Shown one piece after another: positions 6,557-37,759 of a stretch of DNA of 64,000 bases; within the stretch, counting starts at the first letter, position 1; each line of letters opens with the position of its first letter. Under the pieces are notes generated by a model that saw nothing but the letters and a program-made list of their open reading frames with translations, did no database searches and was not told where the DNA came from. The translations under genes and the position numbers were made by a program. This stretch comes from Niastella populi (GTDB lineage: Bacteria; Bacteroidota; Bacteroidia; Chitinophagales; Chitinophagaceae), in contig NZ_LWBP01000001.1 of the NCBI RefSeq assembly GCF_002078015.1, forward strand, positions 124,001 through 188,000, given 5' to 3'.

Positions 6557-6586
6557 CGTTCCGAAGGCTGCCGGCCTATTGGAACG
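6557..6586. terminator. Weak hairpin at the 3' end of the eCIS operon
   Basis: CGTTCC (6557-6562) pairs with GGAACG (6581-6586), and an inner AGGC/GCCT pair extends the stem. It overlaps the stop codon of the ATPase gene. There is no U tract on the minus strand, so termination is uncertain. Confidence 0.3.
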
Positions 6587-7940
6587 GCTTCCCTTCCTTC
6601 ATCATTTCCTTCTGAATGCCCTGCAGTACATCGCTGAGGTAAATGGTTAGTTTGTCGTTGGCGTCGCTATCGTGCCCGTTACGGCGTTCCAGCGCTTTCA
6701 GACTGGCATAGTGCACTACGTTGATGATACTGCCGCCGGCCATTTCATATTTCTTTACCAGATCAGGAACGTCTACGCTGCCGGCGTCATTGCCGGGGGC
6801 GGCCGGTTCTTTGGCAAATAAGGCATTTTCAGGAAATGATTTTTTCCAGATCTGCATGCGTTCGCCGGCATCGGGGAAAGGAAAGCGAAGCGTGGCGTTG
6901 AAACGGCGCATAAAGGCGTCGTCGATATTGCTTTTCATATTCGTGGCCAGAATGATCAGTCCATTGTAATCTTCAATACGCTGCAACAGGTACGATACTT
7001 CCTGGTTGGCGTATTTGTCGTGTGCGTCGCGAACGCTGGTACGTTTGCCGAACAGGGCATCGGCTTCGTCAAAGAACAGGATCCAGCCTTTGTCTTCGGC
7101 GCGGGCAAAAAGCATTTCGAGGTTCTTTTCGGTTTCGCCTATGTATTTGCTCACCACCATCGACAGATCGATCTTATACACTTCTTTACCCATTTCATTG
7201 CCGAGGATGCCGGCGGTGAGTGTTTTGCCGGTGCCGGGTGTACCATAAAACAGGGCGCGGTAGCCTTTTTTGATCCGGTCTTTCATGCCATATTCATTCA
7301 TCAATTGCTGGTTGTATTTTAGCCAGCTCCTGATCTCTTCTATCTGTTTTTTCAGGTCGTCATTGATCACCAGTGAGGCCCATGTTCTGCTTTCCCCGAT
7401 GCGTTTGGCCGGGAACGTGGTACTGAAATGGGGTGGGGAGGGTTTGCCAATTAAAAAGGTGTCGATATAATCGGGCGACATAATAATACGGCCGCTCATG
7501 GCCGGCTCGCCGGTCGGCAGTTCTTCCAGCCACAGGATCTTTTTCTTTGCAAACAGGTGTTGCGAACCGAATAGCTGTTGCACCTGCATTCGCTGGGCCA
7601 GTTGCCCGCCAGCCAGCAGGAAGAGCAGCGTTTCACCGGTGGGTAAAAAGGTGCGCGAATTCTTTCCCCGTACGCCGCCGATCCTTGGAAAATTACCCGG
7701 GTCGCTCAGTTTGCCTTCCACGGCGCTATCGAACAGATCGGGTTGTACATGCGGCGCCAGCGCTACCAGCAGCAGCGTTGCTTCATGTACGTTGAGTTTG
7801 TTCCGGTGCACAAAATCGGCCAGCGGATAATGCCATTGGTCGAGGGTAGGCATCACCGGCTCTGCTTCCTCACTGCCCGATGGAAAATATCCGTTGAGCC
7901 GGTACCTGACCAGTTGTTCAAGATATATGAGTTCTTTCAT
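6576..7940 (-). CDS. eCIS AAA+ ATPase (Afp15-like)
   Basis: 454 aa. The first 190 residues are the variable helical domain usual in eCIS ATPases. The C-terminal half is an AAA+ module: Walker A GTPGTGKT (233-240), Walker B FFDEADALFGKR (289-300), sensor 1 LATNMKSNID and arginine finger MRRF. This is the conserved ATPase of contractile injection clusters (Afp15/PVC15), needed for particle assembly or maturation in the related Afp system. It is the last gene of the eCIS operon, 35 bases after the immunity-like gene. Its position after the cargo genes suggests the cluster is one transcription unit. Length and motifs are normal. Confidence 0.9.
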   Translation of the reverse strand: MKELIYLEQLVRYRLNGYFPSGSEEAEPVMPTLDQWHYPLADFVHRNKLNVHEATLLLVALAPHVQPDLFDSAVEGKLSDPGNFPRIGGVRGKNSRTFLPTGETLLFLLAGGQLAQRMQVQQLFGSQHLFAKKKILWLEELPTGEPAMSGRIIMSPDYIDTFLIGKPSPPHFSTTFPAKRIGESRTWASLVINDDLKKQIEEIRSWLKYNQQLMNEYGMKDRIKKGYRALFYGTPGTGKTLTAGILGNEMGKEVYKIDLSMVVSKYIGETEKNLEMLFARAEDKGWILFFDEADALFGKRTSVRDAHDKYANQEVSYLLQRIEDYNGLIILATNMKSNIDDAFMRRFNATLRFPFPDAGERMQIWKKSFPENALFAKEPAAPGNDAGSVDVPDLVKKYEMAGGSIINVVHYASLKALERRNGHDSDANDKLTIYLSDVLQGIQKEMMKEGKPFQ

Positions 7941-7975: not shown

Positions 7976-8710
7976 TTATTGTATAAGCCGGCCGCCCACA
8001 TCGGGGTAGGCATCGAACATGCTGATCAGCAGTTGCAGGTCTTCGCGGTTTTCAATACTCAAAACGTTTTCGGTGAGCTGAAATAACAGTCCCGCATCAG
8101 CGGTTTGTTTTACTGAGAACACCTGTTCTTTAAGTGTATTGTAGTTTACCCGCATCTGCTCAACGGTTGTTTTGCTCCAGTAATTGATCCACGCCATGCC
8201 GGAAGGAATAAAAGGGCCGCGGTATTTTGCAGGGGGCTTTAACCGGGGCAGGCCCAGCTTCGCGGCTATTTCAAACCCCACTGGCTGCAGCTGCAGGGCT
8301 GCATACCCTTCTGTATTGCTGTCGTTCATAACAGCCCAGTATGGGCGCCACAGGGCAATCAGTTCTTCCATGAAACTGAGGTAAGAAGCGGCCGGCTGCA
8401 CTTCATCCGACATTTCAATAAGGATATACCATACATTTTCACCTGCATAACCAAATGGTTTTTTAAGGGCAAAACCGGAAAGCTCAACCATCAACCGCTC
8501 GTTGCCATTGGTGATCAGGGGTATGCGTTCGTTATGGTGAATGGTATCTTTAATAAATAACGGGGCGTCTTCCAGTAGTACCAGTTCTCCTTCTATATCA
8601 ATTGTTTTATCAAAGGCATCGCCGGGGAACTGCCGGGTCAGCAGATCAAGTACCGGCTGAACCGGCACAGGCGTATTGAAAGGACAAAATAATTTTACCA
8701 GTTTGCTCAT
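7976..8710 (-). CDS. Imm52/DUF5953-like immunity protein, cognate to the upstream nuclease cargo
   Basis: 244 aa from ATG 8710, 8 bases after the cargo stop; a TTG at 8725 would give a slight overlap and is less likely. It shows the pattern I know from DUF5953/Imm52 proteins: an N-terminal strand, a central PLITNGNERLMVELSG, the block LPRLKPPAKYRGPFIPSGM-AWINYWS and a terminal MFDAYPDVGGR. In myxobacteria this family often sits beside DUF6310 nuclease-like proteins, and the gene just upstream ends in such a domain. No signal peptide, so it is cytosolic, as expected for neutralising an intracellular nuclease. Family recall is from memory without a search; the pairing itself is strong contextual support. 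Confidence 0.72.
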   Translation of the reverse strand: MSKLVKLFCPFNTPVPVQPVLDLLTRQFPGDAFDKTIDIEGELVLLEDAPLFIKDTIHHNERIPLITNGNERLMVELSGFALKKPFGYAGENVWYILIEMSDEVQPAASYLSFMEELIALWRPYWAVMNDSNTEGYAALQLQPVGFEIAAKLGLPRLKPPAKYRGPFIPSGMAWINYWSKTTVEQMRVNYNTLKEQVFSVKQTADAGLLFQLTENVLSIENREDLQLLISMFDAYPDVGGRLIQ

Positions 8711-8718
8711 ACTACAAA

Positions 8719-11700
8719 TTAACAATTTATCAATAGCAAATTTACACCCGGTGGTATCCTTGGTAACAGATCGAGGTACATTTGCTGGTCGGTTACTGCA
8801 AAAACATAACCATGCAAACAGGCCGTTGCCAGCGGCAATTCCCTTGCAATTTCAGCCAGCGCCTTGTTAATGGTAATGCGGCGTAACCACGGACCATAAT
8901 TACTGTAATTATTTGTTTTCACTTCCCACAAACGATCGGCCAGGTCTATCGCATCATAACTTTTTCTGCCCAGGGCGGGGTGTACCACTTCAATATCGTT
9001 ACCCGGGAATACGTTGGGCGGAACCGTATCGGCACAGAAATTATGCCTTGCATTTCCTCCCCTGTGGTACCCGAGGGGATATACAAGACAGGGTTTGGGT
9101 TTGGGCTTGGGTTTCGGCTGCGGTCCGGGACCGGGACCAGGGCCGGGGCCAGGACCGGGTACAGGTATCGGCGCGGGTTTTAGTATTGCCTGCACCAGTT
9201 TGTACAGCAAATAGAGCAGGATCGCTATCAGGATCAGGATGATGATGATAATTATGATAGCGATAATGATGATAATGGCAATCAGCACTTCTTCCGCTAT
9301 AATGATGACAACTCCGCCAATGATGATGACCACAGATCCTTCAACGAATATAACGACGGCGCCGCCAATTACGACAACGGTTACAATGATTACTTCTACG
9401 ATCACCGGCGGCGCCAGGAAAGCGGGCGCCAGTAAAGCCGGCGGTGCAAACAACGCACGCGAGCCGCCGCTCAAACTGTTTACATCAAATGCGCCGCCCG
9501 TTACAAAATTACTGACGGCATCCCCGATAAAGGTTTGTATGCGCTCCCATATGTTCTGCGCCGCCAGTTGCAGGGCCCGTACAGGATTACCGATAAGGTT
9601 GGTTATCGCTTCATACAACCGCGTAAACGAATCGATCACAGATTGTATTATACGGTCTACTGCGCGGGCTACCAGATCTATAATACGTCCCAACTGATCG
9701 ATCATGCGTAAGATGAACTGCGCTATTCTTACCGCTATGCGGGCAATGGCTACCTGAATTTGCAGTTTAACCTGTTGTATGGCCGATAACAGTTGCTGCA
9801 CCAGCATCGAAAATACAGCTGCCGTCTTTTGTTCGAAGTCGTCGATTATAAAAGCGTTGGCGGTGGCAAACTGGTACGCAACAGCGCTTATTTGTTGAAC
9901 TTGTTGTTGAATGGTAAGGGGAGCTCCGTTTTGATGCTGACCGGCGGTTTGTGCAGCCGGGCCGGGCGATACCAGGTCTGCGATCCTTTGAAGGGCCTGC
10001 CGGTAATTTTTGCGGATCATGCGGATGATCTGCCTGCGCGTGAGCTCGATCTTTTGCAGGATCATTCTTTCAACCCGCTGCAAAACCGGGAATACCGTAT
10101 TGTTCAGGATGCCCATCAGGGTGTTTATGACGGCAGCGCCAATACGTTCGAGATAACCAAAGACCATACTGATAAGCCGGTTAACCGCTGCCAGCGCTAT
10201 ATCGAGCAAGCGGTTTACAAACTGGTTCAGCTTTTCAACAATAAGGGCAATGGCGTTCATCGCCTTTTGCAGCATCGATGTAATGAATGACACTACGGTG
10301 TCGAGCGCCGTATTGATAAAACCGGTGATGCGGTTAATGACGCTGACAATGCTGTTGCGTAGTGTTTCAACGCCGGGCAGGTTGGGCAAACTGATCGATT
10401 GCACCAATGCGGATATGCGGCCCGCAATACCGCCGATTACCCCGATGATGCTTTGTTGGGTGCTGGTTACGAACGATGAAATATTGTTTACGAATTGCAG
10501 ACTGGTGGTTAAACCGCGCGTCAATGCGCCGGTAACCATGGCGCTGATATGCGCTTTAACGGTTTCGGCATTCATTGACAGGAACTGCCGGCTGTTGATG
10601 AGCGATAGTTGCACCTGCAGAACACGGTCGAGCACAAAACCGGTAATATTTTCCCGCACTGTACCAAAATACGCACTGTACTCAACCGATCTGCGGAAGG
10701 CAATGCGGTTGGCCGCCATTTCCGACATCGATGCATCCTGGCGCATAAAGTTCGCCTGCGATTGCGCTTCCTGTTTTAACGGTGAATCTTCCGCCTGTGC
10801 CAGCCGGTTCATTAACAGCCCTTCTTCTGTTTCGTTGCCGGTTGACTGCTCTTCCCTGGTTGCCGGTGCGGGTTCGCCGCCGGGTATTTGTTCACCCACC
10901 GCTGTTGCTGCTTCCATGCCGGCGTTTGTTGCTTCCGGTACAGGTGCGCCCTGTGGAACCGGCGCGGGTTCAGCGGCCGCTGCTGCAGGTGCCGCTTGCG
11001 CCAGTGATGGTGCACCAGCCACGGCAGGTGGTGCAGCCTGTTGTGCCGGTGATGGTGCTTTCGCCACGGCAGGCAGGTTGCCGCTTTGCTGCGGCGTAGC
11101 CTGGTAATTAGCGGCCGGCATCTCCGGTTGAGCGGTTACGGCTTCGGGCAGGGCGGCGGGAGCAGGTACAGCCGTTGCTGGCGCGGGTGATGCCGGTTCA
11201 ACCGCTGTTTCCGGCGATAATGAATTATTTGTACCGGTTTCACTGGCGGCGGGTTGCCGTTGGGGTACTGCTCCCTGTTGTATGGTATGCGTTAACTCAT
11301 GCGCCAGCAGGTGCTGCCCGGCCACACTGTTCGTATCGTATCTGCCTTCGTTGAAGTAAATATTGTTGCCATGCGTGAAAGCCTGTGCATGCAGGCCCTG
11401 GTTCATTTGAGCGGCATGGCTGTTGGTATGAATACGCACATCGCTGAGATCGGCGCCCATCGCGGTTTCCATATTAGTGCGCACGGGGTCGGGTAGTGCA
11501 GCGCCCTGGCCCTCCGTGGCCGATAAACGTTCTTCCAGGCCCGGTGTTCCTGAATCGTCATCTCCTTTTTTCTGTACATCTTTTTCTACGTGGCAACCGC
11601 ACATTTGCACAACACCGTCGTCTTTTTCCTCAGGGAATTCGTGCGGGGGCGGGGGAGCCGTGTTCTTCAACGGCGGTTCATTGTTTGTTTCCCCTTCTTC

Positions 11701-12021
11701 TTTTTGCTGCAGTTTTTCCTCTTTTTCGCATTCGGCGCATTTTGTTTGAACAAAGGGCGTTACCGGAGTGGTTGCCGTAACCGGTTTTGTTTGTTGCTTC
11801 GGATCGTGCAGCCGCTGCACTACTTTATCGGCAACATGATCTGCCTCCTGTTCATATTTGTCATTGGGCCGGCCTACATTCAGTTTTGCCTGAACAGGCG
11901 GATCGCTTTTTTTGAAAAAAGAAGTTTCATTGTTGAAAGCCGCTTCACCGCCTTTCCTGTTGAAGAAAGGTTTGCTGCCGGGGGCAGTGGTTGTGGTGCT
12001 GGTTGGTGAATGCGCTTTCAA
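8719..12021 (-). CDS. DUF4157 eCIS cargo with hydrophobic segment and C-terminal DUF6310-like nuclease
   Basis: 1100 aa. Residues 1-75 hold FF-K-G motifs and the leader PNDKYEQEADHVADKVVQR. Cys pairs (CAECEKEE near 95-102, CGC near 141) precede the DUF4157 domain (about 165-250) with zinc-protease-like HELTH (241-245). Residues 255-400 are Pro/Ala rich. Residues 420-860 are amphipathic helices, like a pore or tape-like structure. Residues 869-943 are almost pure Val/Ile with small residues. A Pro-Gly then Pro-Lys linker (948-977) leads to a 123-residue end with GGNARHNFCAD, PPNVFPGND and D1026...W-E1033-V-K1035-T, which fits a PD-(D/E)XK core and the DUF6310 family. DUF4157 proteins are known eCIS-associated cargo. 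Predicted job: a delivered nuclease toxin. The immunity-like gene follows directly. Confidence 0.82.
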   Translation of the reverse strand: MKAHSPTSTTTTAPGSKPFFNRKGGEAAFNNETSFFKKSDPPVQAKLNVGRPNDKYEQEADHVADKVVQRLHDPKQQTKPVTATTPVTPFVQTKCAECEKEEKLQQKEEGETNNEPPLKNTAPPPPHEFPEEKDDGVVQMCGCHVEKDVQKKGDDDSGTPGLEERLSATEGQGAALPDPVRTNMETAMGADLSDVRIHTNSHAAQMNQGLHAQAFTHGNNIYFNEGRYDTNSVAGQHLLAHELTHTIQQGAVPQRQPAASETGTNNSLSPETAVEPASPAPATAVPAPAALPEAVTAQPEMPAANYQATPQQSGNLPAVAKAPSPAQQAAPPAVAGAPSLAQAAPAAAAAEPAPVPQGAPVPEATNAGMEAATAVGEQIPGGEPAPATREEQSTGNETEEGLLMNRLAQAEDSPLKQEAQSQANFMRQDASMSEMAANRIAFRRSVEYSAYFGTVRENITGFVLDRVLQVQLSLINSRQFLSMNAETVKAHISAMVTGALTRGLTTSLQFVNNISSFVTSTQQSIIGVIGGIAGRISALVQSISLPNLPGVETLRNSIVSVINRITGFINTALDTVVSFITSMLQKAMNAIALIVEKLNQFVNRLLDIALAAVNRLISMVFGYLERIGAAVINTLMGILNNTVFPVLQRVERMILQKIELTRRQIIRMIRKNYRQALQRIADLVSPGPAAQTAGQHQNGAPLTIQQQVQQISAVAYQFATANAFIIDDFEQKTAAVFSMLVQQLLSAIQQVKLQIQVAIARIAVRIAQFILRMIDQLGRIIDLVARAVDRIIQSVIDSFTRLYEAITNLIGNPVRALQLAAQNIWERIQTFIGDAVSNFVTGGAFDVNSLSGGSRALFAPPALLAPAFLAPPVIVEVIIVTVVVIGGAVVIFVEGSVVIIIGGVVIIIAEEVLIAIIIIIAIIIIIIILILIAILLYLLYKLVQAILKPAPIPVPGPGPGPGPGPGPQPKPKPKPKPCLVYPLGYHRGGNARHNFCADTVPPNVFPGNDIEVVHPALGRKSYDAIDLADRLWEVKTNNYSNYGPWLRRITINKALAEIARELPLATACLHGYVFAVTDQQMYLDLLPRIPPGVNLLLINC

Positions 12022-12036: not shown

Positions 12037-15000
12037 TCAGGGTTTATCAGGATCGCCAATGGAATTGATGATGAACATTTTTCCATACAGTTCCCGCGGG
12101 GTGCTTTGTTTCACTTCGCCGTTCTCTATATATTGTACCGGTTGATCATAGATCTCGTTTGCATATTGGCGGTTCATGGTATCGTAGATGGGCCATACAT
12201 TATTCAATGTATCATTGCCGCCCAGGCCCTGGTCCAATGCGTGGTCGGCATCGGTTGGTCCCAGCTTCCAGCTATAATTATAGTTCTCAAACAGCGTCCT
12301 TACTTTATTCGACACGCTATATTTTTGCGGCGACTTCCTTCGTTTCAATCGCTTTTTATTATCCCTTATTTGTTTTGCCTGGTACAGGGGGTCTATTCCA
12401 ATGTAAATGAATTTCACTGTATGCCCGTTACGGGTTTCAGATTTTGCATCGCCTGGGAATGATTTATTTTGCGTGGGTGGCAGTTCGAGTTTTGTTTTCC
12501 CATCCCATGCGGCGGTGACCTCAGGCGGCGGCGGTATCTTTCCCCATCTCGGCGAATAGGGTGTTAACGTAATGGGCGAATGATAACCGCGTTTAGCCCA
12601 CCTGATGGGGATCGGGTATTCATAACTGCCATCGCCCAGTGCTGCATTGGGTGTTGCGCTTCCCGGCGAAGGTGTTGATGCTGCTGTGGCGCCCAGGTCT
12701 TTTATGCCATACCGTTTGCCAAAATCAGCGATCTGCCTGCTCAATGGATGAAATCCGGGAACTTCATAAGTTTTTGGGTCGAGCCCTTTATCGCGGGTGC
12801 GGTTAATAAGGGTGCCGGCGCTTTTCTGTAATTCGTCGAGGTCGTCGAGCTTCCGTTGCAGTTCTTTTTTCCTGTCATCGTCCTTTTCAGTTTTTAGTAA
12901 CATAACCGTGCGGTCCCGTTCTGCTCTTATCTTTTCAGACAATTCCTTTGGTGTGCTTGCCATTTTAAGAGTAACCGGCTGGCCGGGTTCGCCTGCGGTT
13001 AGTTCAAGATAATGCCATACGCCTTCCATCTGGAAGTCGTCTTTAATGGCAGTAGGCGGTATCGTTTTCTCAGGAATAGGTATGGGGTCCTTGCTTCCTT
13101 CCGTTACCTCTTTGCTTTCTTCATTAGTGAATTTGCTTTTGTTCGCATTCGTTTCTTTGGGCGTTTTGTTTTGCAGCACGCCCTTTACGAAATTCTTGTT
13201 GTTGAACGATGAGCGTCTGAATTTGACTATTTCCCTTAGCTTTTCTTTGGTGAGTTTGTCGCCGATATCGTAGTCAAAGTCAACCGTCAGGCCGGCGTTT
13301 GCAACAGGCCATTGTTTGTCGATCTTCGGGTCGGTTACCGTGCCGCCCGCTACGGAAAAATCTATTAACCCTTTTAGTGCAAGTGTTAATTCGCCTGCCA
13401 GTTGCAGCGCGCCTTTGATATAGGTTCTTGGCACTTTTTCATCTTTGGTGCCTGGTTTTGTTTTTTGTCTTACGCCAAAAGTGGCCGCAAGGTCGAGATA
13501 GGTTTTGAGAGCGGCTTCACCATCCACATCCACTACAACTGAAGACAGGTTAAAGCCCAGGTAAGGGATCTTTGTTCCCACCCGCACTGCGGCTTTCGCC
13601 CAGATATTCACTTTCCCATTCAATTCAGCAGAGAGATTTAGCCGTGCCGACACGGATAATTCCTTGTTGATAGCCGGGTTGGTTGAATAAAGGCCGGCAA
13701 TGGTAATGTCGTGTAATGTCAATGGCCCCAGCATGTATTTGTAATACAAACCGCCGTGGCCTTTGAAATACAAACCGGCGGGCACACCTGGTATATAGAT
13801 CATATATGGACCAAACGATTTTTCCAGCGCGGGATGTACCGGTTCCCAGTCGGTACCCGTTGGGTGCATCAGCGTATACATTTTTTCAACAGTAATGCTG
13901 CCGCTTACGGTTATATGCCCATCAGGATCTATTACAACCCCAGCTTTCCCGCTTACAAGGTCTGAGCCGTCCTCGTTTTTGACGATAGATAATTCTATAA
14001 GACCCCAACCAGCCACCACCAGCTCATTTCCTGTTGCTGAAAGGGTAGATAACGATACAGGACCGTCATCTTCCATGGCAGGTAACTGCTGACCAACTTC
14101 TTCCCAGGCTTTTTCTATTGTAGTTACTATCAGCGTGGCTTTTGCGCTTTTGACCCGGCCCTTATTATCTGTTGGTATATATGCTGCTTCGCCGCGAATG
14201 TCGAGTATGCCGGCTGCATAGGAAGCATGCAGCGAAGCGGTGATATTATTGATGTTCCAGGTCTTGTTCAGCTGCATGTCGGGGATGATCCCGTGCAGTT
14301 TTGCGCGGCGATCGCGTTCAAGCTGCATTTCTTTATCTTCCAATCCTTTCACCTGAAGCCGCAGCGAACCATCCCAGGCGAAAATGTCATCGATGATGGC
14401 AATGCTGCCGATCAGCACCTGTCCGTCGCTGATCTTATAATAACCGGCCAGGTTGAACTGCAGCATACCGCCGGTAATGGCATTCTGGTATATTACTTTT
14501 GTAAACAGTTCAACCGGGTAGTCTTCCCCAAATACCAGTTTTATCAGCAATGTTTCATCAAACAATTGTTGCATAGCTGTTTTACCGGCGGCCCTTACCA
14601 TCCAGCCGCGGGGCAGCACCGCAATGCCGCCGTAAATGGAACTGTCTGTACCGTCTATGCCAACCGCGAGATAAGTATTTTCTTTTTTGCCTTCCATGTT
14701 GAACGCAGGGTGCGTCATTTCCATGAACTGTGCCGGCATTTCGTAGTGGCCGGTGGCAAGATGGTACCGGATACGAACGCCTTTTTTCGAAGCGAGGTTA
14801 CCGTATTTGATATTCAATAGAACACCGTTCTTTAACTGGTCGTCGAATGAGATGCCGAACGTGGTTGCGGTGGTTTTGTTTTCTTCATACCATTGTACAA
14901 GTGTAGCAAAGGCTTTGATGTGATTGGCAATGTACGAGGGCGGATCGAATAATGGCATGCCCTTCAGGTTGATAGGAATGGCCAGCAGGGTTTTGATGAT

Positions 15001-16473
15001 ATGATTACCCATGCGTACCATATCGGCCTCTTCATTATCGTCGAGCAGTTTTTCAACGCCCCACCTTATCAGCCGGCCCGCTACGTAGCGCGCGCCAATG
15101 CCAGCCAGCGGTGCAAGGAACGCAACGCGTTGAATATTGGGCACACCTTCTGGTTTTTGTTGTACCGGAGCCGAAGCGTTGCCCGATTGCTGTACGGTAT
15201 GTGTTAATTCATGCGCCAGCAAATGTTGCCCGGCCGCACTGTCGGTATTGTACTTTCCGCTGTTGAAGTAAATGTCGTTCCCATGAGTAAATGCCTGTGC
15301 ATGTAATTGCCGGTTCATTTGTACTGCATCGCCGCCGGTATGAACTCTTACCTTGCTGAGATCACTGCCAATGCCGTTTTCCATCTTACTGCGTACCTGT
15401 GGGGGCAGGGGCGCCCCTTTGCCCCGGGAAGATGACAGCTGCTGCTCTATATTGGCCGGCGCTGTTCCGTCGCTTCCCTTTTTTTGCACTGCTTCTTCCT
15501 TTTCACAGGCCGGACATTTTGTTTGCAGGCCGGGTGTAAAGGGCGTAATACCGCTGACGGGTTTGGTTTGAATATTACCGGTACCGGACATACGTTGTAC
15601 CACATGGTCGGCTACTGAATCGGCTTCCTGTTCATATTTATCATTGGGTTGGCCCACTGTCAATTTGGGTTGAACTTCGGCCGGGACCGGCGCTGGAACC
15701 GGCGTTCCAGCGGGAGCCGGGGTGCGTGTGGCAGCCGTATGGGTTTGCCAGTAATTGTAGCCGAGATAGGGGTATGGCCCCAAAAGGAAATTTACATTGA
15801 TACCGCATTGGTTCAATACCCACCAGGCAAATGAATTACTGTTGGGGCCGCTGGTAGCATGGTATGGGTGGCCTGCAGCATGATAAGCTGCGGTGCGCGT
15901 TTTGAGACAATTGATAAATGCCGGACAATCGGTTGGTGTAATGTCCCATTGTACGCCGCGTGCTTCCCAGGTGCCTGGTTTTACCCAGGCGCCGCTATGA
16001 CCGCCGCCTGTTGTTGCGTGCGAAGGAACCGGCCCTGCTTCTATAACCCCATAATCGGAACTGTTCAGATAGTAATCAATATACAAATGCCGCATGGCCG
16101 GCACATACCCCGACCAGTGATCGATCCTTCGGCCGCCGAGGATCACATGACATTGCCCGTCGGTTGGCGGCTCTTCCGAAGGCCATAGGTCGCCCAGCAT
16201 CCAATCGGCCTGTATGGCCGGGGCGCCGCTTGTTTCACCTACAGGCGCCGGTGTTTCACCCGAACGCTGCACTACCTGGTCGGCCGTGCCTTCCGCTTCC
16301 TGTTCGTGTTTATCACCGGCCGTTTTGGTTTGTATGGCGGGTGTTTGTCCTGTATTAAAGAACGAACCGCCCGTTTCCCTGTTCTGCATAGCCTGCCCGC
16401 CACCTTTGCTAAAGAAAGGTGCGCTGCCCGTGGCAGCCGCAGGCGCCGTGGTTTTTGTAGCGTGTGTTTTCAT
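12037..16473 (-). CDS. Giant DUF4157 eCIS cargo with N-terminal insert and C-terminal HNH-like motif
   Basis: 1478 aa from ATG 16473, chosen because the MKTHATKTTAP start matches the MKAHSPTSTTT start of the sister cargo; an upstream ATG at 16512 would overlap the previous gene. Residues 1-70 carry two FF motifs and a partial leader (DKHEQEAEGTADQVVQR). Residues 88-245 form an insert with GHSGAW and GPNSNSF (209-215), resembling permuted papain-fold families such as DUF3750. A second, full leader (PNDKYEQEADSVADHVVQR, 276-294), CPACEKEE and the DUF4157 domain with HELTH (421-425) follow. The long middle is beta-rich and unassigned. The end has DADHALDQGLGGND then NNVWPIYDTMNRQ, an HNH-type nuclease layout (D-H at 1410-1411). 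No immunity gene is seen beside it. Confidence 0.8.
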   Translation of the reverse strand: MKTHATKTTAPAAATGSAPFFSKGGGQAMQNRETGGSFFNTGQTPAIQTKTAGDKHEQEAEGTADQVVQRSGETPAPVGETSGAPAIQADWMLGDLWPSEEPPTDGQCHVILGGRRIDHWSGYVPAMRHLYIDYYLNSSDYGVIEAGPVPSHATTGGGHSGAWVKPGTWEARGVQWDITPTDCPAFINCLKTRTAAYHAAGHPYHATSGPNSNSFAWWVLNQCGINVNFLLGPYPYLGYNYWQTHTAATRTPAPAGTPVPAPVPAEVQPKLTVGQPNDKYEQEADSVADHVVQRMSGTGNIQTKPVSGITPFTPGLQTKCPACEKEEAVQKKGSDGTAPANIEQQLSSSRGKGAPLPPQVRSKMENGIGSDLSKVRVHTGGDAVQMNRQLHAQAFTHGNDIYFNSGKYNTDSAAGQHLLAHELTHTVQQSGNASAPVQQKPEGVPNIQRVAFLAPLAGIGARYVAGRLIRWGVEKLLDDNEEADMVRMGNHIIKTLLAIPINLKGMPLFDPPSYIANHIKAFATLVQWYEENKTTATTFGISFDDQLKNGVLLNIKYGNLASKKGVRIRYHLATGHYEMPAQFMEMTHPAFNMEGKKENTYLAVGIDGTDSSIYGGIAVLPRGWMVRAAGKTAMQQLFDETLLIKLVFGEDYPVELFTKVIYQNAITGGMLQFNLAGYYKISDGQVLIGSIAIIDDIFAWDGSLRLQVKGLEDKEMQLERDRRAKLHGIIPDMQLNKTWNINNITASLHASYAAGILDIRGEAAYIPTDNKGRVKSAKATLIVTTIEKAWEEVGQQLPAMEDDGPVSLSTLSATGNELVVAGWGLIELSIVKNEDGSDLVSGKAGVVIDPDGHITVSGSITVEKMYTLMHPTGTDWEPVHPALEKSFGPYMIYIPGVPAGLYFKGHGGLYYKYMLGPLTLHDITIAGLYSTNPAINKELSVSARLNLSAELNGKVNIWAKAAVRVGTKIPYLGFNLSSVVVDVDGEAALKTYLDLAATFGVRQKTKPGTKDEKVPRTYIKGALQLAGELTLALKGLIDFSVAGGTVTDPKIDKQWPVANAGLTVDFDYDIGDKLTKEKLREIVKFRRSSFNNKNFVKGVLQNKTPKETNANKSKFTNEESKEVTEGSKDPIPIPEKTIPPTAIKDDFQMEGVWHYLELTAGEPGQPVTLKMASTPKELSEKIRAERDRTVMLLKTEKDDDRKKELQRKLDDLDELQKSAGTLINRTRDKGLDPKTYEVPGFHPLSRQIADFGKRYGIKDLGATAASTPSPGSATPNAALGDGSYEYPIPIRWAKRGYHSPITLTPYSPRWGKIPPPPEVTAAWDGKTKLELPPTQNKSFPGDAKSETRNGHTVKFIYIGIDPLYQAKQIRDNKKRLKRRKSPQKYSVSNKVRTLFENYNYSWKLGPTDADHALDQGLGGNDTLNNVWPIYDTMNRQYANEIYDQPVQYIENGEVKQSTPRELYGKMFIINSIGDPDKP

Positions 16474-16483
16474 GGCAGATGAT

Positions 16484-17944
16484 TTATCTCCATTCAACTC
16501 TGATAATTTCACCCCACCATGGCAGCCTGATCAAACTCAGGTTCCATGGCAAATGATCGAGCAGTACATCGATGGCGTTCTTTTCTACCGCTATGTACAG
16601 TTGTTCATTTTTTGTATACAGTTTACCATTCCGTTGCAGAAAGCCCTGGCGCAATCCATCGGGCGAAGTGTTTTTCAAAATGTTCCACTGCGAAATGGCC
16701 GCGCGCAGGAGATCGTCGGCTTCCTGTAATTCGTTTATGGTAAGAATTATGTCTGTGTTTACCGGTTCTTCAATAGCATAACCACATAATATTTTCGGTA
16801 TAACCAGTTCATGCTCTTCAGCTGTTGTTGCGCCTGTGGCTATGTAATGCAACAGGTAAATGGCTTTTTGCCGGCTGGCCGCATTGGAAAAATGTTTTCC
16901 ACCGAGCAGGCCGCAAAGCGAGAACAGCGAGCGGAGAAAGGGATGTACCAGTACCAGGCCGGCATGTTGAACAAACATTCCGTCTTCTTCCTTCAGCCAC
17001 CGCCGTTTGCTATCAGCTGCGGGTTGTTCGCCGTTGTCAGCGATGTTCTTCTTATCACGACTGATCGCTGTATCGCCGGCCTCGCGCTGCCGGGCGCCTG
17101 CTTCCCGCTGCAGTTGGTGCTGAACTGCCGCCAGCGCCGGTTGTAATTGGGTGTAACCTGCCGTCTGCGGCATTATTTTTTCCAGTGCAGGCAGGTGTTC
17201 AATGGTAAGATTTTCCTGTATTATGGTAGTGGCCAGTTGGGTGGTTGTAAGCGTTGTTCCGGTTGCGGCGGCAAGGGTTATTATTTGCTGCCAGCATTCC
17301 TTACGGTTTGGTACAGCCAGTTGCGCTGCGCCTGCTTTCTGTAAGCTGTTAAAAAACTGTTCTGCTTCTGCAATGGCCCCGGGTAACCGGTTTTGATCAC
17401 TGGCAGTAAATACGGTAATGAGTTGAGTGAGCCAGGCAGCGGTATGCTGCTGTGCAATTCGTATGGCTACGGTCTTGTTGTTCCTTATTTCCTCGCGTAG
17501 CATGGTTACGCTGTGATGATTAACCGCCAGTTCTTCCAGCACTTTGTGCAGCCAATCTTCCGATATGCGTAACACATTCCAGGGCAGATAGCCTTTTTGC
17601 ATGTAATGCAGCCATTGGGTAAATGCATGTTGCGGGCCTGCACGTTTACCGGTTGTTGTATGGTGAACGTCTATGTGCTCCTGTAGCTTATTAGTGATGG
17701 CCGGTATTGCTATTTTATGCAATTGTGTTTTTTGTAATTGTTGTACATCGATTGCGCCGAGGTCAATTTCCAGGCGGTCGATGTATTGTACTGTTCCGGG
17801 TGCAGATAATTTATTCAATTCAATTTCCAACAGCGACAGGAAATGATGCCAGTACCAGTCGCTTACCTGCTGCTGAATATCGAACGCATCGAGGCGTTTG
17901 TCGATCGTGAGCTCAATTATCTGTTTTTTTATCAGGTGCTGCAT
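16484..17944 (-). CDS. Contractile injection system tape-measure family protein
   Basis: 486 aa. The N terminus MQHLIKKQIIELTIDKRLDAF-x-x-QQQVSDWYW matches the start of the Bacteroidota CIS tape measure family, which in eCIS clusters sits between the large baseplate genes and the DUF4157/ATPase genes, as here. The middle has helical repeats (WLHYMQKGYLPW, LEELAVNHHSVTMLREEI) and the C-terminal third a conserved-looking AGLVLVHPFLRSLFSLCGLL and LPWNLSLIRLPW. The tape-measure function rests on family naming; direct length control is not shown by sequence. It lies 8 bases after the Afp12-like gene and 10 bases before the cargo ATG, so translation is probably coupled. Confidence 0.75.
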   Translation of the reverse strand: MQHLIKKQIIELTIDKRLDAFDIQQQVSDWYWHHFLSLLEIELNKLSAPGTVQYIDRLEIDLGAIDVQQLQKTQLHKIAIPAITNKLQEHIDVHHTTTGKRAGPQHAFTQWLHYMQKGYLPWNVLRISEDWLHKVLEELAVNHHSVTMLREEIRNNKTVAIRIAQQHTAAWLTQLITVFTASDQNRLPGAIAEAEQFFNSLQKAGAAQLAVPNRKECWQQIITLAAATGTTLTTTQLATTIIQENLTIEHLPALEKIMPQTAGYTQLQPALAAVQHQLQREAGARQREAGDTAISRDKKNIADNGEQPAADSKRRWLKEEDGMFVQHAGLVLVHPFLRSLFSLCGLLGGKHFSNAASRQKAIYLLHYIATGATTAEEHELVIPKILCGYAIEEPVNTDIILTINELQEADDLLRAAISQWNILKNTSPDGLRQGFLQRNGKLYTKNEQLYIAVEKNAIDVLLDHLPWNLSLIRLPWWGEIIRVEWR

Positions 17945-29792: not shown

Positions 29793-31568
29793 TTAGTTTA
29801 TTTTTACCAGTGAACCGCTGATGTCGGTAATGCCCGATGACGATACTTTCGTCATGGCGCCCTGTATTTCACAATTGCCATCTGCTTTTACCGAGAGCGA
29901 CATACCGCCTATTGATAATGTAGCGCCTGCCGAGAGGGTGAGGTTCGCACCCGCCTTCAGTTCTATATTCTGCGGGCTTTCTATCGAAACACCGCTGGTG
30001 CCCATGGTCACTTTATTGTTGTTCTGATCTTTGATCTCTATTTTGCTTCCGGCTTCATCGAGCTGAATGCTGTTGCCGGCGGGGGTATCGATGGTAATGG
30101 TCTTTGTATTGTCGTTAAAATGAATGCGCATTTTACTGCGTGTAAAAAAGCCTTTTTCATCATTGGCATCGGCTGCCTGCAGGGGCGCGGGTTTGGCGCT
30201 GCTGTTCAACTGGCCCAGCATAATGCCATGACGCGGATCGTCGTTGATAAATCCTACGATCACTTCATCGCCTATTTCGGGCCGGAAGAAGGCGCCGCGC
30301 GTATCACCGGCATCGAGACTGGCCACGCGCACCCAGGTGCCTTCGGCATTGTTATCGATAACGGGTATTTTAACCAGGATGCGGTCATCACCGTCTGGAT
30401 CGGTTGCGAGGCGTTTTACGATCCCTATCTGCAAACCGTGAATGGAACCAACCAGCCCGGCGCTGAGCATGTCATCAACCTGCGGGGTTTTGGCCGCGTA
30501 CTGTGTTGGGTCGTAACCGAATTGGATATGCGTATACCAGGCGCCATTGGCTATATCCTGTACAACTGCCGTCACCAGCGCTTTGCCGTTAAAGCGGTCG
30601 CCGATACCGGCAAGCTTTACCATATCGCCCGGTTGTACGCCTGAAAAACCGGTGATGCGTGCGCGCCCTCTTATTTTGCTCAGGCGGCTGCGCATCATAA
30701 TGCCGTCGGCCCAGTCCTGCAGTTCCTGTTCCAGTAAATGCCCGCTGTGGTGAACGAGGTATTTATCGAGGTCAATAGCTTCTGCGAGGTGGCTGCCAGC
30801 GATATTACCCGGCTCGGTAAACCCCTGCGCTTCGGAGGCATCGGCTTTGAACAATTGCTGACCGGCATAATCCCACGAGGCGGCTTCCACGTTTTTCCAT
30901 TGCGTGCGCGCATCCATCGATGCTTCCAGTTCCAGGATCGATGAACCGTAGGTTACCTGTATAACGGGCTCGGCAGCGGTAACCGGTTTGGTGATCTTTA
31001 TTTCACCATCGTTTACAAACACCAGCATGCCGTTGGCTTCAGCGCGCAGCAACAGGAAGTCCCAGTCGCTCACATGGTGCTGTACCACTTCCTTATGTGT
31101 TAGGGTGGTGGTTTGAACATCGCCTGATAACCCGCTGTAAGCGCTTATCAGCGTGTCGAAGAGCTGGCTGTCCTTTACCTGTTCGTAATAGCGGCTATGG
31201 CGGCCGATGGTCATCTTCACCGCTTCATCGCGGCATTCGATATGCAGTTCGCTTTTGCCGTTCTCTTTTATTTTTACCGAGTGGCGGGTGATGATGCCTT
31301 TGAAAGCCTGGCTGTTGTTGCTGTCGAACCCTATTTTGATCTTTATTTTATTACCGGGTACAAAATCATTGCTGTTGCTGATGTCGAAACTGCGCTGCGC
31401 GGCATCGCCATCGCGCAGGATGATCTTTGCCGTGGGTATGCGGTTCACTTCTTTGGTTATGGAAATACCCAGCACCTGGTACGATGGGTTCACCGGCGTT
31501 TCGTTCACCAGTATATTGAAAGTGCTTACATCGTGTTGCGACGGGTTTGGTATGATCAGTTCCTCCAT
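29793..31568 (-). CDS. VgrG-like spike/hub protein (Afp8-like)
   Basis: 591 aa. Residues 1-370 match the gp27-like hub (phage late control/VgrG fold: SNDFVPGNKIKIKIGFDSNNSQAFKG near 85-110). Residues about 375-480 form the OB-fold domain, with LVGSIHGLQIGIV, RILVKIPVI and GAFFRPEIGDEVIVGFINDDPR (all typical of VgrG/gp5). The last 90 residues are a repetitive beta-helix of Ile/Lys/Ser type that ends as the PAAR-binding base. The start codon shares one base with the LysM gene stop (TGATG). Forms the trimeric membrane-piercing spike. Confidence 0.94.
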   Translation of the reverse strand: MEELIIPNPSQHDVSTFNILVNETPVNPSYQVLGISITKEVNRIPTAKIILRDGDAAQRSFDISNSNDFVPGNKIKIKIGFDSNNSQAFKGIITRHSVKIKENGKSELHIECRDEAVKMTIGRHSRYYEQVKDSQLFDTLISAYSGLSGDVQTTTLTHKEVVQHHVSDWDFLLLRAEANGMLVFVNDGEIKITKPVTAAEPVIQVTYGSSILELEASMDARTQWKNVEAASWDYAGQQLFKADASEAQGFTEPGNIAGSHLAEAIDLDKYLVHHSGHLLEQELQDWADGIMMRSRLSKIRGRARITGFSGVQPGDMVKLAGIGDRFNGKALVTAVVQDIANGAWYTHIQFGYDPTQYAAKTPQVDDMLSAGLVGSIHGLQIGIVKRLATDPDGDDRILVKIPVIDNNAEGTWVRVASLDAGDTRGAFFRPEIGDEVIVGFINDDPRHGIMLGQLNSSAKPAPLQAADANDEKGFFTRSKMRIHFNDNTKTITIDTPAGNSIQLDEAGSKIEIKDQNNNKVTMGTSGVSIESPQNIELKAGANLTLSAGATLSIGGMSLSVKADGNCEIQGAMTKVSSSGITDISGSLVKIN

Positions 31569-32275
31569 CAGGCTTCGTTTTTATCGAATGGTGGAAAATA
31601 GAGCTCGTTGCCCGGTTTTATTTTTCTGATAGTAGTGAGCGCATTCACTTTGGCCACCTGCAGAAAATAATTCGGGTCGTTGTAAATGCTCCAGGTCATC
31701 AGGTCGAGCCGGTCGCCCTGTTTAACCGCGCGGTAGTGCGTGAGGTCGGGTGAGCTAAGCCGTGATTCTGCCTGGATCTCTTCCCTCGACTTATGCGCAA
31801 GGAAGGTGGCGTTCACTTTTACCCGTAACGGTTTGCCATCGGGTTCGAACAGGGAGAAGTTCAGCTCGAGATTCGAAAGCACACACCTGAAATCGATCTC
31901 CGAGCCCCAGTGTACGATCAGGAAGCGCGGCCGGTGAATGTTGCCATCCATATTGTACACGCATTTTTTGAGATCGGCCAGCTGGTCGTGCACGGGTTTA
32001 TTGATGTATTCTTTGTTATCGCCGCCATAACCTTCCATTGTTTTGGTGCCATCGAGAATGAACTCCAGCCGCAGTTCTTCGGGCGCGGTGCTTTTATACC
32101 GCGCTTCGCTGCCCTGGTTGCCATGCCCCGTTTGCGTATCGACATTCACCTTATAGGTTTGTGAGAACGATTCGGGGTTGATGGGCGTGGCAAACTGCCG
32201 CGTGGGGTCTTCACCTGTGAAATCGCGGTTGGCGAATGATTTGATCACCAGTTTGCGGAGGCTGTTATCGCTCAT
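31568..32275 (-). CDS. LysM-type baseplate hub protein (Afp7-like)
   Basis: 235 aa. The N-terminal 170 residues follow the Afp7/gp53-related pattern (FATPINPESFSQTYKVN, TAPEELRLEFILDGT, RPRFLIVHWGSEIDFRCVLSN). A C-terminal LysM-like stretch (AVKQGDRLDLMTWSIYNDPNYFLQVAKVNAL then PGNELYFPP) completes it. In eCIS this protein links the inner tube to the hub. The ATG overlaps the end of the small DUF5908 gene by 11 bases. Confidence 0.9.
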   Translation of the reverse strand: MSDNSLRKLVIKSFANRDFTGEDPTRQFATPINPESFSQTYKVNVDTQTGHGNQGSEARYKSTAPEELRLEFILDGTKTMEGYGGDNKEYINKPVHDQLADLKKCVYNMDGNIHRPRFLIVHWGSEIDFRCVLSNLELNFSLFEPDGKPLRVKVNATFLAHKSREEIQAESRLSSPDLTHYRAVKQGDRLDLMTWSIYNDPNYFLQVAKVNALTTIRKIKPGNELYFPPFDKNEA

Positions 32276-32432
32276 TTTTTTCTTTTAAGATGTCCATCAC
32301 TTTTTCCACGCAGGCCTGGATGATCTCTTCCTGTGAGCCGCCGCTTCCCTGGGAGGCGCCGGCCGACTGACCGTTGGGGCTATCCTGCGTTACTACGGCC
32401 TTTATCACCAGTTCGCGAACTTCTATTGGCAT
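32265..32432 (-). CDS. DUF5908-family small eCIS protein
   Basis: 55 aa by my own translation, from ATG 32432 to TAA at 32265. It starts MPIEVRELVIKAVV, the conserved N terminus of DUF5908 proteins that sit between the tube and LysM genes in Bacteroidota eCIS clusters. A Ser/Gly/Gln-rich linker (about 18-33) leads to the helix EEIIQACVEKVMDILKEKNER. It begins 10 bases after the second tube gene and overlaps the LysM start by 11 bases. Function unknown; the short strand plus C-terminal helix suggest a small adaptor. It is easily missed because of its length. Confidence 0.88.
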   Translation of the reverse strand: MPIEVRELVIKAVVTQDSPNGQSAGASQGSGGSQEEIIQACVEKVMDILKEKNER

Positions 32433-32442
32433 ATGTGAAAAT

Positions 32443-32901
32443 TTAACCGTGATTGAACAACAGCTTGTTGTAATTCAGTTCCAGCGTTTCGAGCAATACC
32501 TCACCGCGTTCGGCATTCAGTTCACCCAGCTTCCAGCTGCGGGGCCACACATTGTTGATGACCCAATACATCAGCGGCTGGTGATCTTCATCGAGCAGGT
32601 TGATCTGCACCGTGCGGATCACTTCGTATTTTCCATCGTCGAACGCTTTCTGCAGCCAGGTGGTAAGACCGGAATCTGTTGGTTTCAGCAAACCCCGTTT
32701 CAATATCAGCGGGCCGTATTTGCGGCGGGTGGGGATCACATGTTCAAAATGATTCTCGCCGCCTTCCCTGATGGTTTCGGTATCGACGTTGCCATCGAGA
32801 CCGCTGACCGACTGAAACTTTACATCCACTTCCTTTGCTTCACCCAGTGCAAACTGAACGCTGAAATGAAAATTGACCGTTTGATAAAAATTCTCAGCCA
32901 T
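32443..32901 (-). CDS. eCIS inner tube protein 2 (Afp5-like, hub-proximal)
   Basis: 152 aa of the gp19/T4-like tail tube family: FHFSVQF, FQSVSGLDGNVDTETIREGG, LKRGLL, then LLDEDHQPLMYWVINNVWPRSWKLGELNA and the closing ETLELNYNKL. It differs from its neighbour by lacking the Pro-rich start and is placed nearer the LysM/spike genes, so it may be the tube-initiating form that contacts the hub. It is 5 bases after the first tube gene. Confidence 0.9.
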   Translation of the reverse strand: MAENFYQTVNFHFSVQFALGEAKEVDVKFQSVSGLDGNVDTETIREGGENHFEHVIPTRRKYGPLILKRGLLKPTDSGLTTWLQKAFDDGKYEVIRTVQINLLDEDHQPLMYWVINNVWPRSWKLGELNAERGEVLLETLELNYNKLLFNHG

Positions 32902-32906
32902 TGCGT

Positions 32907-33371
32907 TTATTTCTTGGCTTCAACAATCGATAACCCTTCGTGCACCAGTTCCATGGTTTCGATGGCCACTTCATTGGCATCGGCCTTCAGATCGCCGCTT
33001 TGGACTTTGGAAGGCCAGGCTTTTGAAAGCGTCCAGGAAATAACGGGCTGGTGCTCTTCATCGAGCAGGCGAATGGTAACATCTCTTCTGAACTTTTCTT
33101 TGCCTTCCTGGAATAATTGTGTTTTTTTCCATTGTTCAAAGAATTCGAAGTCGCCCAGGAAGGTGCCGCGTTTAAGGGTGACGTTGCTGAACTTGGTAAG
33201 GCCGGGTTGTTTTGTTTTATTGTAGGTTGGACTACTGCCTTCACGGTATTCGATCACTTCGGTTTCGAAGTCAAGACCGGTTACTTCAGTGAAACCGATA
33301 CGTGTTCCGCCCCAATCGAGTTGAAAATGGAATTTCGGGAGCGGATAGTTCTTTTTTGGATCGTCAGCCAT
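32907..33371 (-). CDS. eCIS inner tube protein 1 (Afp1-like)
   Basis: 154 aa, same tube fold: PLPKFHFQLDWGG, FTEVTGLDFETEVIEYREG, LKRGTFLGDFEFFEQW, RLLDEEHQPVISWTLSKAWPSK and the C-terminal ETMELVHEGLSIVEA. The VTGLDFETE and LLDEEHQPV motifs are those of major CIS tube subunits. Probably the main tube protein stacked along the particle. An unusually long repetitive leader (33372-33911) separates it from the preceding gene, which could give it an independent expression level. Confidence 0.92.
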   Translation of the reverse strand: MADDPKKNYPLPKFHFQLDWGGTRIGFTEVTGLDFETEVIEYREGSSPTYNKTKQPGLTKFSNVTLKRGTFLGDFEFFEQWKKTQLFQEGKEKFRRDVTIRLLDEEHQPVISWTLSKAWPSKVQSGDLKADANEVAIETMELVHEGLSIVEAKK

Positions 33372-33408
33372 AGTTGTTAGTTTATTGTTTATGGTTTATT
33401 GTTTATAG

Positions 33409-33796
33409 TTCTTTTATTCGAAACTCGAGACTAATTGCAAGGCGTTTTCTTTTGTTTATTGTTTGTGGTTCTTTATTTCGAAGCTCAAGACTAATTGCAA
33501 GGCTCGCTTCTTTGGGTTTATGGTTTATTGTTTTTTGTTTATTGTTCTTTTATTCGGAACTCGCGACTGGGTTCTTAGTTTGTGGTTTATGGTTTGTTGT
33601 TTGTGGTTCTTTTATTCGAAGCTCATAACTAATTGCGGGCTTCGCTTTCTTTTAGTTTATTGTTTATTGTTCTTTTATTCGGAGCTCGCGACTGGGTTCT
33701 TAGTTTGTGGTTTATGGTTTGTTGTTTGTGGTTCTTTTATTCGAAGCTCATAACTAATTGCGGGCCTCGCTTTCTTTTAGTTTATGGTTTATTGTT
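33409..33796. repeat. About 63-bp degenerate tandem repeat with a 125-bp duplication
   Basis: Units contain CTTTTATTCG, then GAAGCTC, ACTAATTGC, CTCGCTTTCTTTTAG and TTTATGGTTTATTG. The blocks 33547-33671 and 33672-33796 are near-identical 125-bp copies (two units each); an earlier, more diverged pair covers 33409-33546. The reverse complement recurs at about 53774-53890. The spacer 33372-33911 has no gene. Confidence 0.85.
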
Positions 33797-37752: not shown

Positions 37753-37759
37753 GCTTTAT

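What the first reader, a model, noticed from the sequence alone, without database searches (positions are those of the whole stretch)
7976..12021. eCIS cargo with a DUF6310-like nuclease end and a cognate Imm52/DUF5953-like immunity gene
The DUF4157 cargo ends in a domain with GGNARHNFCAD, PPNVFPG and an E-V-K-T core that fits DUF6310/PD-(D/E)XK nucleases. The gene starting 8 bases later fits DUF5953/Imm52. This pair is known to me from myxobacteria as neighbours, but an immunity gene inside an eCIS operon is unusual, since eCIS cargo usually acts on eukaryotic cells. It implies DNA/RNA damage to the producer is a real risk, or that bacteria are targets.
Basis: partly seen in the sequence, partly recalled or inferred. 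Interest (0 to 1): 0.9.

Follow-up and report, generated by a model that had tools for sequence, protein, structure and literature searches.

The report
Injected nuclease with matching immunity gene
A bacterial phage-tail-like injection machine carries a cargo protein that appears to end in a DNA-cutting toxin, directly followed by a gene that probably protects the producer, a toxin-antidote pair otherwise seen here only in predatory myxobacteria; this suggests the machine is aimed at other bacteria.

Summary
Confirmed. The 1100-aa cargo (8719-12021, minus) has an eCIS core domain (DUF4157) and ends in a DUF6310 domain (E 5.7e-21); 8 bases after its stop lies a 244-aa DUF5953 gene (E 1.6e-24). 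DUF6310 keeps a D...(D/E)-x-K motif in 20 of 20 unselected relatives and models confidently (pLDDT 95.5) with PD-(D/E)XK element order, but Foldseek gave no PDB hit at E <= 0.001. The DUF5953 model (pLDDT 90.7) matches a solved Imm52-type protein (E 6.4e-8) and the T6SS immunity protein PA0821 (E 3.7e-7). In 19 myxobacterial genomes 135 of 140 DUF6310 matches are followed by DUF5953; no other Bacteroidota genome searched had DUF6310. Best reading: an antibacterial nuclease with its immunity protein in the cargo bay (tape measure to AAA ATPase) of a contractile injection system. Some related bays also hold candidate toxin-immunity cassettes, one swapped between two congeners. Toxicity, rescue, binding and target are untested. 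New member of a known kind.

The parts
8719..12021 (-). eCIS cargo protein, 1100 aa (listed start TTG at 12021; true start not established)
   Evidence: ORF; Pfam
11272..11496 (-). eCIS core domain (DUF4157, PF13699), aa 176-250
   Evidence: E 2.5e-30
9457..10764 (-). long region aa 420-855, probably helical (inferred by eye); no similarity to other cargo proteins found
   Evidence: sequence and composition; no relative at 1e-6 in the other 293 of 294 family genomes (query aa 428-965); blastp matches to cargos of 20 related regions all end by aa 363
9178..9441 (-). strongly hydrophobic stretch aa 861-948 (19-residue Kyte-Doolittle mean up to 4.1), candidate membrane-insertion segment
9091..9165 (-). 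Pro/Gly/Lys-rich linker, aa 953-977
   Evidence: sequence
8722..9090 (-). DUF6310 toxin domain (PF19829), predicted PD-(D/E)XK-type fold
   Evidence: E 5.7e-21; alignment; model pLDDT 95.5
8917..8955 (-). predicted catalytic motif D1023-x9-E1033-x-K1035
   Evidence: in 20 relatives not selected by motif: D 20 of 20, E/D 11/9, K 20 of 20
7976..8710 (-). DUF5953 immunity-protein gene, 244 aa, starting 8 bases after the cargo stop
   Evidence: E 1.6e-24; model pLDDT 90.7; Foldseek 4rho/7drg
12037..16512 (-). first DUF4157 cargo, 1491 aa; no separate gene between it and the second cargo (15-base gap)
16484..17944 (-). CIS tape measure protein (PF19268), upstream edge of the cargo bay
   Evidence: E 2e-107
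6576..7940 (-). AAA ATPase, downstream edge of the cargo bay
   Evidence: E 2.3e-27
29793..39726 (-). CIS structural genes: hub/spike, CIS_tube, two tube proteins, sheath, Pvc16, with unassigned ORFs between

Best explanation
The pair is a polymorphic toxin-immunity module on a contractile injection system. The cargo is probably recruited to the particle through its N-terminal leader and DUF4157 domain (suggested for this class by others; inferred here). Its C-terminal DUF6310 domain is a PD-(D/E)XK-type nuclease that cuts nucleic acid of the injected cell, probably bacterial DNA (inferred from motif and predicted fold). The hydrophobic stretch and Pro-rich linker before it may carry the domain across the target's inner membrane (inferred). 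The DUF5953 protein, made from the next gene, binds the toxin domain and keeps it inactive in the producer and its kin (inferred from fold, adjacency and the myxobacterial pairs).
For: Family matches well over cut-off. 41 of 44 DUF6310 ORFs in 43 Myxococcota loci have a DUF5953 homologue downstream on the same strand; the other 3 lie too near the end of the stored DNA, and their contigs show the partner. By family model in 19 genomes: 135 of 140 DUF6310 matches, 125 of 126 at least 280 bases long; the one exception ends 190 bases before its contig end. D49, four Cys, H19 and D24 invariant in 38 of 38; in 20 further domains not picked by motif D49 and K61 are 20 of 20 and position 59 is E in 11, D in 9. 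Model order helix-strand-strand-strand-helix-strand-helix-strand, D just after strand 2, E-x-K in strand 3. DUF5953 model vs 4rho (Imm52-type by sequence, E 5.5e-12) E 6.4e-8, and vs PA0821 E 3.7e-7, an immunity protein and top structural match of TsiV3. Profile comparison DUF5953-Imm52 P 4.1e-5. Of 17 ORFs upstream of myxobacterial Imm52 genes (of 30 loci), 10 that looked like toxins were scanned and all 10 are Tox-REase-5. Cargo-bay position, and a congener pair with swapped toxin tip and downstream gene.
Against: No Foldseek PDB hit at E <= 0.001 for the DUF6310 model; best is Card1 at 0.066. DUF6310 vs Tox-REase-5 profile comparison is weak (Prob 4.7, P 0.0086). Neither profile matches a solved structure by sequence at a useful E-value; for DUF5953 the top one is 4rho at 0.35. 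The first cargo has no immunity gene of its own, so immunity is not a rule even in this operon; in 13 of 20 regions fetched I saw no small gene directly after a large DUF4157 cargo, though one region is cut and two have no gene between tape measure and ATPase. No activity, binding or target was tested.
Confidence: 0.8

Rival explanations
1. The nuclease acts on the producer's own population, as in Streptomyces davawensis, where a DUF4157 effector with a C-terminal endonuclease drives DNA release and differentiation; DUF5953 then tunes or times self-damage rather than protecting during attack on rivals.
For: Similar layout (DUF4157, hydrophobic helices, C-terminal endonuclease) is described for Tme (passages).
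Against: The word immunity does not occur in the Tme paper, whereas DUF5953 is tightly paired with DUF6310 in myxobacterial toxins.
Confidence: 0.12
2. The cargo is aimed at eukaryotic cells (amoebae, fungi, invertebrates) and DUF5953 only guards against leakage of a broadly toxic nuclease during production.
For: Classic eCIS act on eukaryotes (passages); a nuclease can be toxic to any cell.
Against: The toxin domain and its partner are shared with myxobacteria; a related cluster carries Ntox15 with a Tdi1-type T6SS immunity protein.
Confidence: 0.2
3. DUF5953 is a chaperone or loading adaptor for the cargo, not an inhibitor.
For: It is co-encoded with the cargo and lies inside the CIS operon.
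Against: The same family follows DUF6310 in short myxobacterial proteins, many with an apparent lipobox, and its predicted fold is that of immunity proteins.
Confidence: 0.05
4. The DUF6310 domain is a degenerate or non-nuclease domain that keeps only the fold.
For: No significant PDB fold match.
Against: The motif is intact in the window and in 20 of 20 unselected relatives, as D...(D/E)-x-K, and the immunity gene is retained.
Confidence: 0.07

Closest known systems
DUF6310-DUF5953 pairs of Myxococcaceae
   Same: Same two Pfam families, same order, close adjacency; Pro-rich stretch before the toxin domain
   Different: There the toxin domain ends shorter proteins (most stop-to-stop frames about 190-350 aa), many with an apparent lipobox (lipobox by eye); here a 1100-aa DUF4157 cargo. 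Identity to the window 30-41% for the toxin domain and 19-27% for the immunity protein.
Tox-REase-5 / Imm52 pairs (e.g. TseT-TsiT)
   Same: D...(D/E)-x-K motif aligned in register with weak support; immunity proteins related by profile (P 4.1e-5) and by model-to-structure match
   Different: Separate Pfam families; T6SS delivery in the described cases (passages). That TsiT is an Imm52 protein is recalled.
eCIS-associated toxins with immunity genes (Geller et al. 2021, PMC8213781)
   Same: Toxin-immunity gene pair at an eCIS locus
   Different: The tested pair is a RES-type NADase with its antitoxin (section 13); no library paper names DUF6310 or DUF5953, figures and supplements not seen
Haloarchaeal CIS DUF4157 toxins with downstream immunity genes (PMC11566945)
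   Same: DUF4157 proteins with a downstream gene that prevents toxicity (passages)
   Different: Archaeal, membrane-bound CIS; toxin families not compared here
Tme, tapemeasure-related CIS effector of Streptomyces davawensis (PMC11126660)
   Same: DUF4157, hydrophobic helices, C-terminal endonuclease (passages)
   Different: EndA-like nuclease; largest ORF, beside the baseplate genes; the word immunity does not occur in the text

Membership tests
Pfam DUF6310 (PF19829) | score over curated cut-off | tested here: met
   75.3 bits vs 27
Pfam DUF5953 (PF19378) | score over curated cut-off | tested here: met
   87.5 bits vs 25
Pfam Imm52 (PF15579) | score over curated cut-off | tested here: not met
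   no Imm52 hit for the window protein nor listed for any of the 40 A2 members at E <= 10 (HMMER filters drop most weak matches)
Imm52-like fold superfamily | same fold as solved Imm52 proteins | tested here: met
   4rho E 6.4e-8, prob 1.00, TM 0.55 over 279 columns, rmsd 6.7; 4rho found by an Imm52 profile, E 5.5e-12; profile P 4.1e-5
[quoted passage not shown]
   motif in the window and in 20 of 20 unselected relatives, with D/E exchange; element order in model
PD-(D/E)XK nuclease superfamily | significant fold match to a solved member | tested here: inconclusive
   no E <= 0.001; best Card1 E 0.066, then MUS81-EME1 and BstEII; that these are PD-(D/E)XK proteins is recalled
PD-(D/E)XK nuclease superfamily | nuclease activity | not testable with these tools
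   needs an assay
Contractile injection system | sheath, tube, hub/spike, tape measure, AAA ATPase in one cluster | tested here: met
Extracellular CIS (vs membrane-anchored T6SS-like CIS) | particles released from the cell | not testable with these tools
   needs imaging
Tme-like CIS effector | DUF4157 at N-terminus, hydrophobic helices, C-terminal nuclease | tested here: met
   nuclease predicted only
Tme-like CIS effector | largest ORF of the cluster, beside the baseplate genes | tested here: not met
   ORFs of 2074, 1609 and 1491 aa are larger; the cargo lies between tape measure gene and ATPase
Tme-like CIS effector | remote homology to phage tape measure proteins | not tested
   no profile comparison made
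Polymorphic toxin-immunity system | variable C-terminal toxin on a conserved delivery part, with a cognate immunity gene | tested here: inconclusive
   conserved leader/DUF4157 with different C-termini and a congener swap fit; cognate inhibition not tested
SitA (myxobacterial outer-membrane-exchange toxins) | lipoprotein with a family escort domain, moved by TraAB | tested here: not met
   the window cargo shows no lipobox (by eye) and has a DUF4157 N-terminus; whether the myxobacterial DUF6310 proteins are SitA was not tested

The most novel reading that the evidence does not exclude
CIS of this bacterial family are general polymorphic-toxin launchers: between the tape measure and ATPase genes they keep an exchangeable cassette of DUF4157 cargo tip plus matching immunity gene, and this cassette pool is shared across phyla with toxins of predatory myxobacteria (possibly kin-discrimination lipoproteins), so a toxin delivered elsewhere by membrane contact was refitted to a phage-tail launcher with its own membrane-crossing segment.
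Probability: 0.45. Interest if true: 0.68.

Novelty: new member of a known kind. Interest (0 to 1): 0.52.

Why it matters
What CIS of environmental Bacteroidota are aimed at is largely open (my judgement from the papers seen). A nuclease-like cargo with its own antidote argues for bacterial targets or kin killing and gives a directly testable pair. It also proposes a function for two Pfam families of unknown function and ties DUF5953 to the Imm52-type immunity fold.

Tried and rejected
Relatives were sought in plasmids and viral contigs: none. The middle of the cargo (aa 428-965) gave no relative at 1e-6 in the other 293 of 294 family genomes. PDB sequence searches with the DUF6310 and DUF5953 profiles gave nothing significant; the full cargo likewise. 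NCBIfam gave nothing over cut-off for either protein. Base composition of the toxin domain (GC 0.472) and immunity gene (0.482) is close to that of the cluster, so it neither proves nor excludes recent transfer. I considered calling the cargo a Tme effector and dropped it (position and size do not fit), and considered calling DUF5953 plain Imm52 and dropped it (no Pfam match).

Rows dropped: 6 of the 49 pattern loci (L014, L016, L018, L026, L048, L049), because the motif lies in short or unrelated frames. Alignment A1 holds 37 of the 44 DUF6310 ORFs plus the window: six under 180 aa and the second half of a split frame in L006 were left out. A2 holds 39 of 40 DUF5953 ORFs plus the window (the partial L033 one left out). 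Because the scan pattern asks for W-E-[VIM]-K-T and a Tyr, the invariance of those residues in A1 is partly by construction; I therefore checked 20 matches that lack the pattern. In one search the script took the wrong strand for five of them and undercounted; one search repeats it with the strands.

The 17 unpaired DUF5953 matches are from a listing cut at 150 of 181 and include gene fragments, at least one being half of a paired gene (G591:C40).
Full report
WHAT IS THERE. On the minus strand, 12021 to 8719 encodes a 1100-aa protein with an eCIS core domain (DUF4157, aa 176-250, E 2.5e-30) and a DUF6310 domain (aa 982-1079, E 5.7e-21). Eight bases after its stop an ATG at 8710 opens a 244-aa DUF5953 protein (E 1.6e-24) that ends at 7976. 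Both are well over Pfam cut-offs. Upstream lie a second DUF4157 cargo (12037-16512) and the CIS tape measure gene (PF19268, E 2e-107); downstream lies an AAA ATPase. Hub/spike, CIS_tube, two tube proteins, sheath and Pvc16 lie further upstream. So the pair sits in a cargo bay between tape measure and ATPase genes of a contractile injection system. Whether particles are released or anchored in the cell is not known.

THE TOXIN DOMAIN. An exact motif scan of the genome collection (84,980 species) gave 49 loci; 43 hold a DUF6310-like ORF, all 43 from Myxococcota by record title. Thirty-seven of these domains align with the window at 30-41% identity. Invariant in the 38 rows are D49, E59 and K61 (window aa 1023, 1033, 1035), four cysteines, H19 and D24, among others. 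The scan itself asked for E59 and K61, so I drew 20 further domains from the Pfam-model search that do not carry the scan pattern: D49 20 of 20, position 59 E in 11 and D in 9, K61 20 of 20, the four cysteines, H19 and D24 20 of 20. A D...(D/E)-x-K motif is what the superfamily is named for. AlphaFold2 gives pLDDT 95.5 and the order helix, three strands, helix, strand, helix, strand, with D49 just after strand 2 and E59-x-K61 in strand 3; this is the PD-(D/E)XK arrangement (general knowledge). Foldseek found no PDB match at E <= 0.001; its first five hits are Card1 (0.066), MUS81-EME1 (three chains) and BstEII, which I recall to be PD-(D/E)XK proteins. A profile comparison with Tox-REase-5 domains lines up the motif but is weak (Prob 4.7, P 0.0086; ten column shuffles gave P 0.24 or worse). 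I call it a predicted PD-(D/E)XK-type nuclease; activity is not shown.

THE NEIGHBOUR. DUF5953 is modelled at pLDDT 90.7. Its best PDB matches are 4rho (two chains, best E 6.4e-8) and 7drg, PA0821 (two chains, best E 3.7e-7); the fifth hit is at 0.02. A profile of myxobacterial Imm52 proteins finds 4rho at E 5.5e-12, together with chains named Imm52; the DUF5953 profile itself finds 4rho first but only at E 0.35. PA0821 is called an immunity protein and the closest structure to TsiV3, the immunity protein of a PD-(D/E)XK (VRR-Nuc) T6SS effector, in PMC9635880 (passages). DUF5953 and Imm52 profiles also align directly (18 Imm52 rows, P 4.1e-5, Prob 69.9; 30 rows, P 1.3e-4). Controls on the 30-row set, one reversed and ten column-shuffled, gave P 0.025 to 0.64. 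Of 30 Imm52 loci I looked at 17 for the ORF before; 13 end alike, 4 do not, and the 10 I chose to scan are all Tox-REase-5, so that count is not unbiased. DUF5953 thus looks like a cousin of immunity proteins of REase-fold toxins, although it is not Pfam Imm52 (none of 40 listed).

THE PAIR. In the 43 loci, 41 of 44 DUF6310 ORFs have a DUF5953 homologue downstream on the same strand; three lie too near the end of the stored DNA and appear paired in the whole contigs. With the Pfam models in 19 of these genomes, 135 of 140 DUF6310 matches have DUF5953 within 400 bases downstream, median 59 bases between domain matches. Of 126 matches at least 280 bases long one is unpaired, and it ends 190 bases before its contig end. 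Seventeen of 150 listed DUF5953 matches are unpaired, some of them fragments. The genomes carry 1 to 13 DUF6310 matches each; they were chosen for having one. Many of the myxobacterial toxins begin with an apparent lipobox (by eye), which recalls SitA kin-discrimination lipoproteins (passages), but I did not test that they are SitA.

RARITY. DUF6310 was found only in the window's own genome among 296 phylum, 294 family and 396 order genomes, samples that overlap; DUF5953 likewise in 1 of 294 family genomes. Plasmid and viral collections gave none. A transfer of the pair between myxobacteria and Bacteroidota is likely but old or indirect (19-27% identity for the immunity protein; base composition ordinary), and its direction is unknown.

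CONTEXT IN RELATIVES. Of 294 family genomes 59 have a related tape measure protein at E <= 1e-15. I fetched 20 such regions. By mechanical gene calls read by eye, 7 of 20 have a large DUF4157 cargo followed directly by a small non-DUF4157 gene: L087, L088, L090, L091, L093, L094, L095. In L088 that gene is ParA-like and in L093 a TPR protein, so not all are immunity genes. The clearest case is L094 and L095, two species of one genus: their cargo proteins are 91.7% identical over about 1040 residues and then part, one ending in Ntox15 (E 2e-21), the other in an HNH-like end (E 0.0012, below cut-off). The next genes differ (only short blastp matches, best a 27-residue one at E 0.004); one is a Tdi1-type T6SS immunity protein (E 4.5e-17), the other has no Pfam match; the ATPase beyond is 96% identical. 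I read that as a toxin-immunity cassette swap on a CIS cargo.

HOW IT PROBABLY WORKS. Loading by leader and DUF4157, injection, membrane passage helped by the hydrophobic stretch aa 861-948 and Pro-rich linker, then nucleic acid cleavage; DUF5953 blocks the domain in the producer. Only the sequence features are shown; every functional step is inferred.

AGAINST THE READING. The first cargo has no immunity gene; 13 of 20 relatives show none directly after a large cargo (one region is cut, L096, and two, L104 and L106, have no gene between tape measure and ATPase); the toxin fold lacks a significant PDB match; no complex prediction could be run.

WHAT IS KNOWN. Geller 2021 (PMC8213781; passages and section 13) reports eCIS toxin-immunity pairs and notes that many tested toxins lack an evident immunity gene. 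PMC11566945 (passages) and PMC13277306 (passages) report further pairs. No paper in the library names DUF6310 or DUF5953; figures and supplements were not seen, so Geller's Fig. 5a may hold related cases. The find is a new member of a known kind, with a toxin and an immunity family not named in those searches.

Noticed in passing
window 12037-16512 (-): The first DUF4157 cargo ends in an HNH-like stretch (DADHALDQGLGG...NNVWP, by eye) without a Pfam match and without an immunity gene after it.
   Followed up: partly
own genome, contig C1 45146-45862 and 48585-48782 (outside the window): A second CIS tape measure relative and a third DUF4157 domain suggest a second CIS cluster some 75-80 kb before the window start.
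   Followed up: no
L094 12921-17388 and L095 13037-17314: Two congeners share about 1040 residues of CIS cargo but differ in toxin tip and downstream gene (Ntox15 with Tdi1-type gene; HNH-like with unknown gene).
   Followed up: yes
L088 1583-9021: A 2189-aa CIS cargo ends in a deaminase-type toxin domain (E 6.8e-9) and is followed by a ParA-like ATPase gene.
   Followed up: partly
19 myxobacterial genomes: 17 of 150 listed DUF5953 matches have no DUF6310 match just upstream (some are fragments): possible orphan immunity genes.
   Followed up: no
window 8722-9099 (-): Four cysteines are invariant in 38 aligned DUF6310 domains and in 20 more (positions 4, 22, 94, 126); disulfides or metal binding are possible.
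   Followed up: partly
myxobacterial DUF6310 domains L137-L156: Position 59 of the motif alternates between Glu (11 of 20) and Asp (9 of 20).
   Followed up: yes
window 9178-9441 (-): A stretch of about 88 residues rich in Ile/Val/Leu/Ala/Gly precedes the toxin domain, more hydrophobic (peak 4.1) than any segment in 41 related DUF4157 proteins (peaks up to 2.9); some myxobacterial toxins also show a shorter hydrophobic stretch (by eye).
   Followed up: partly
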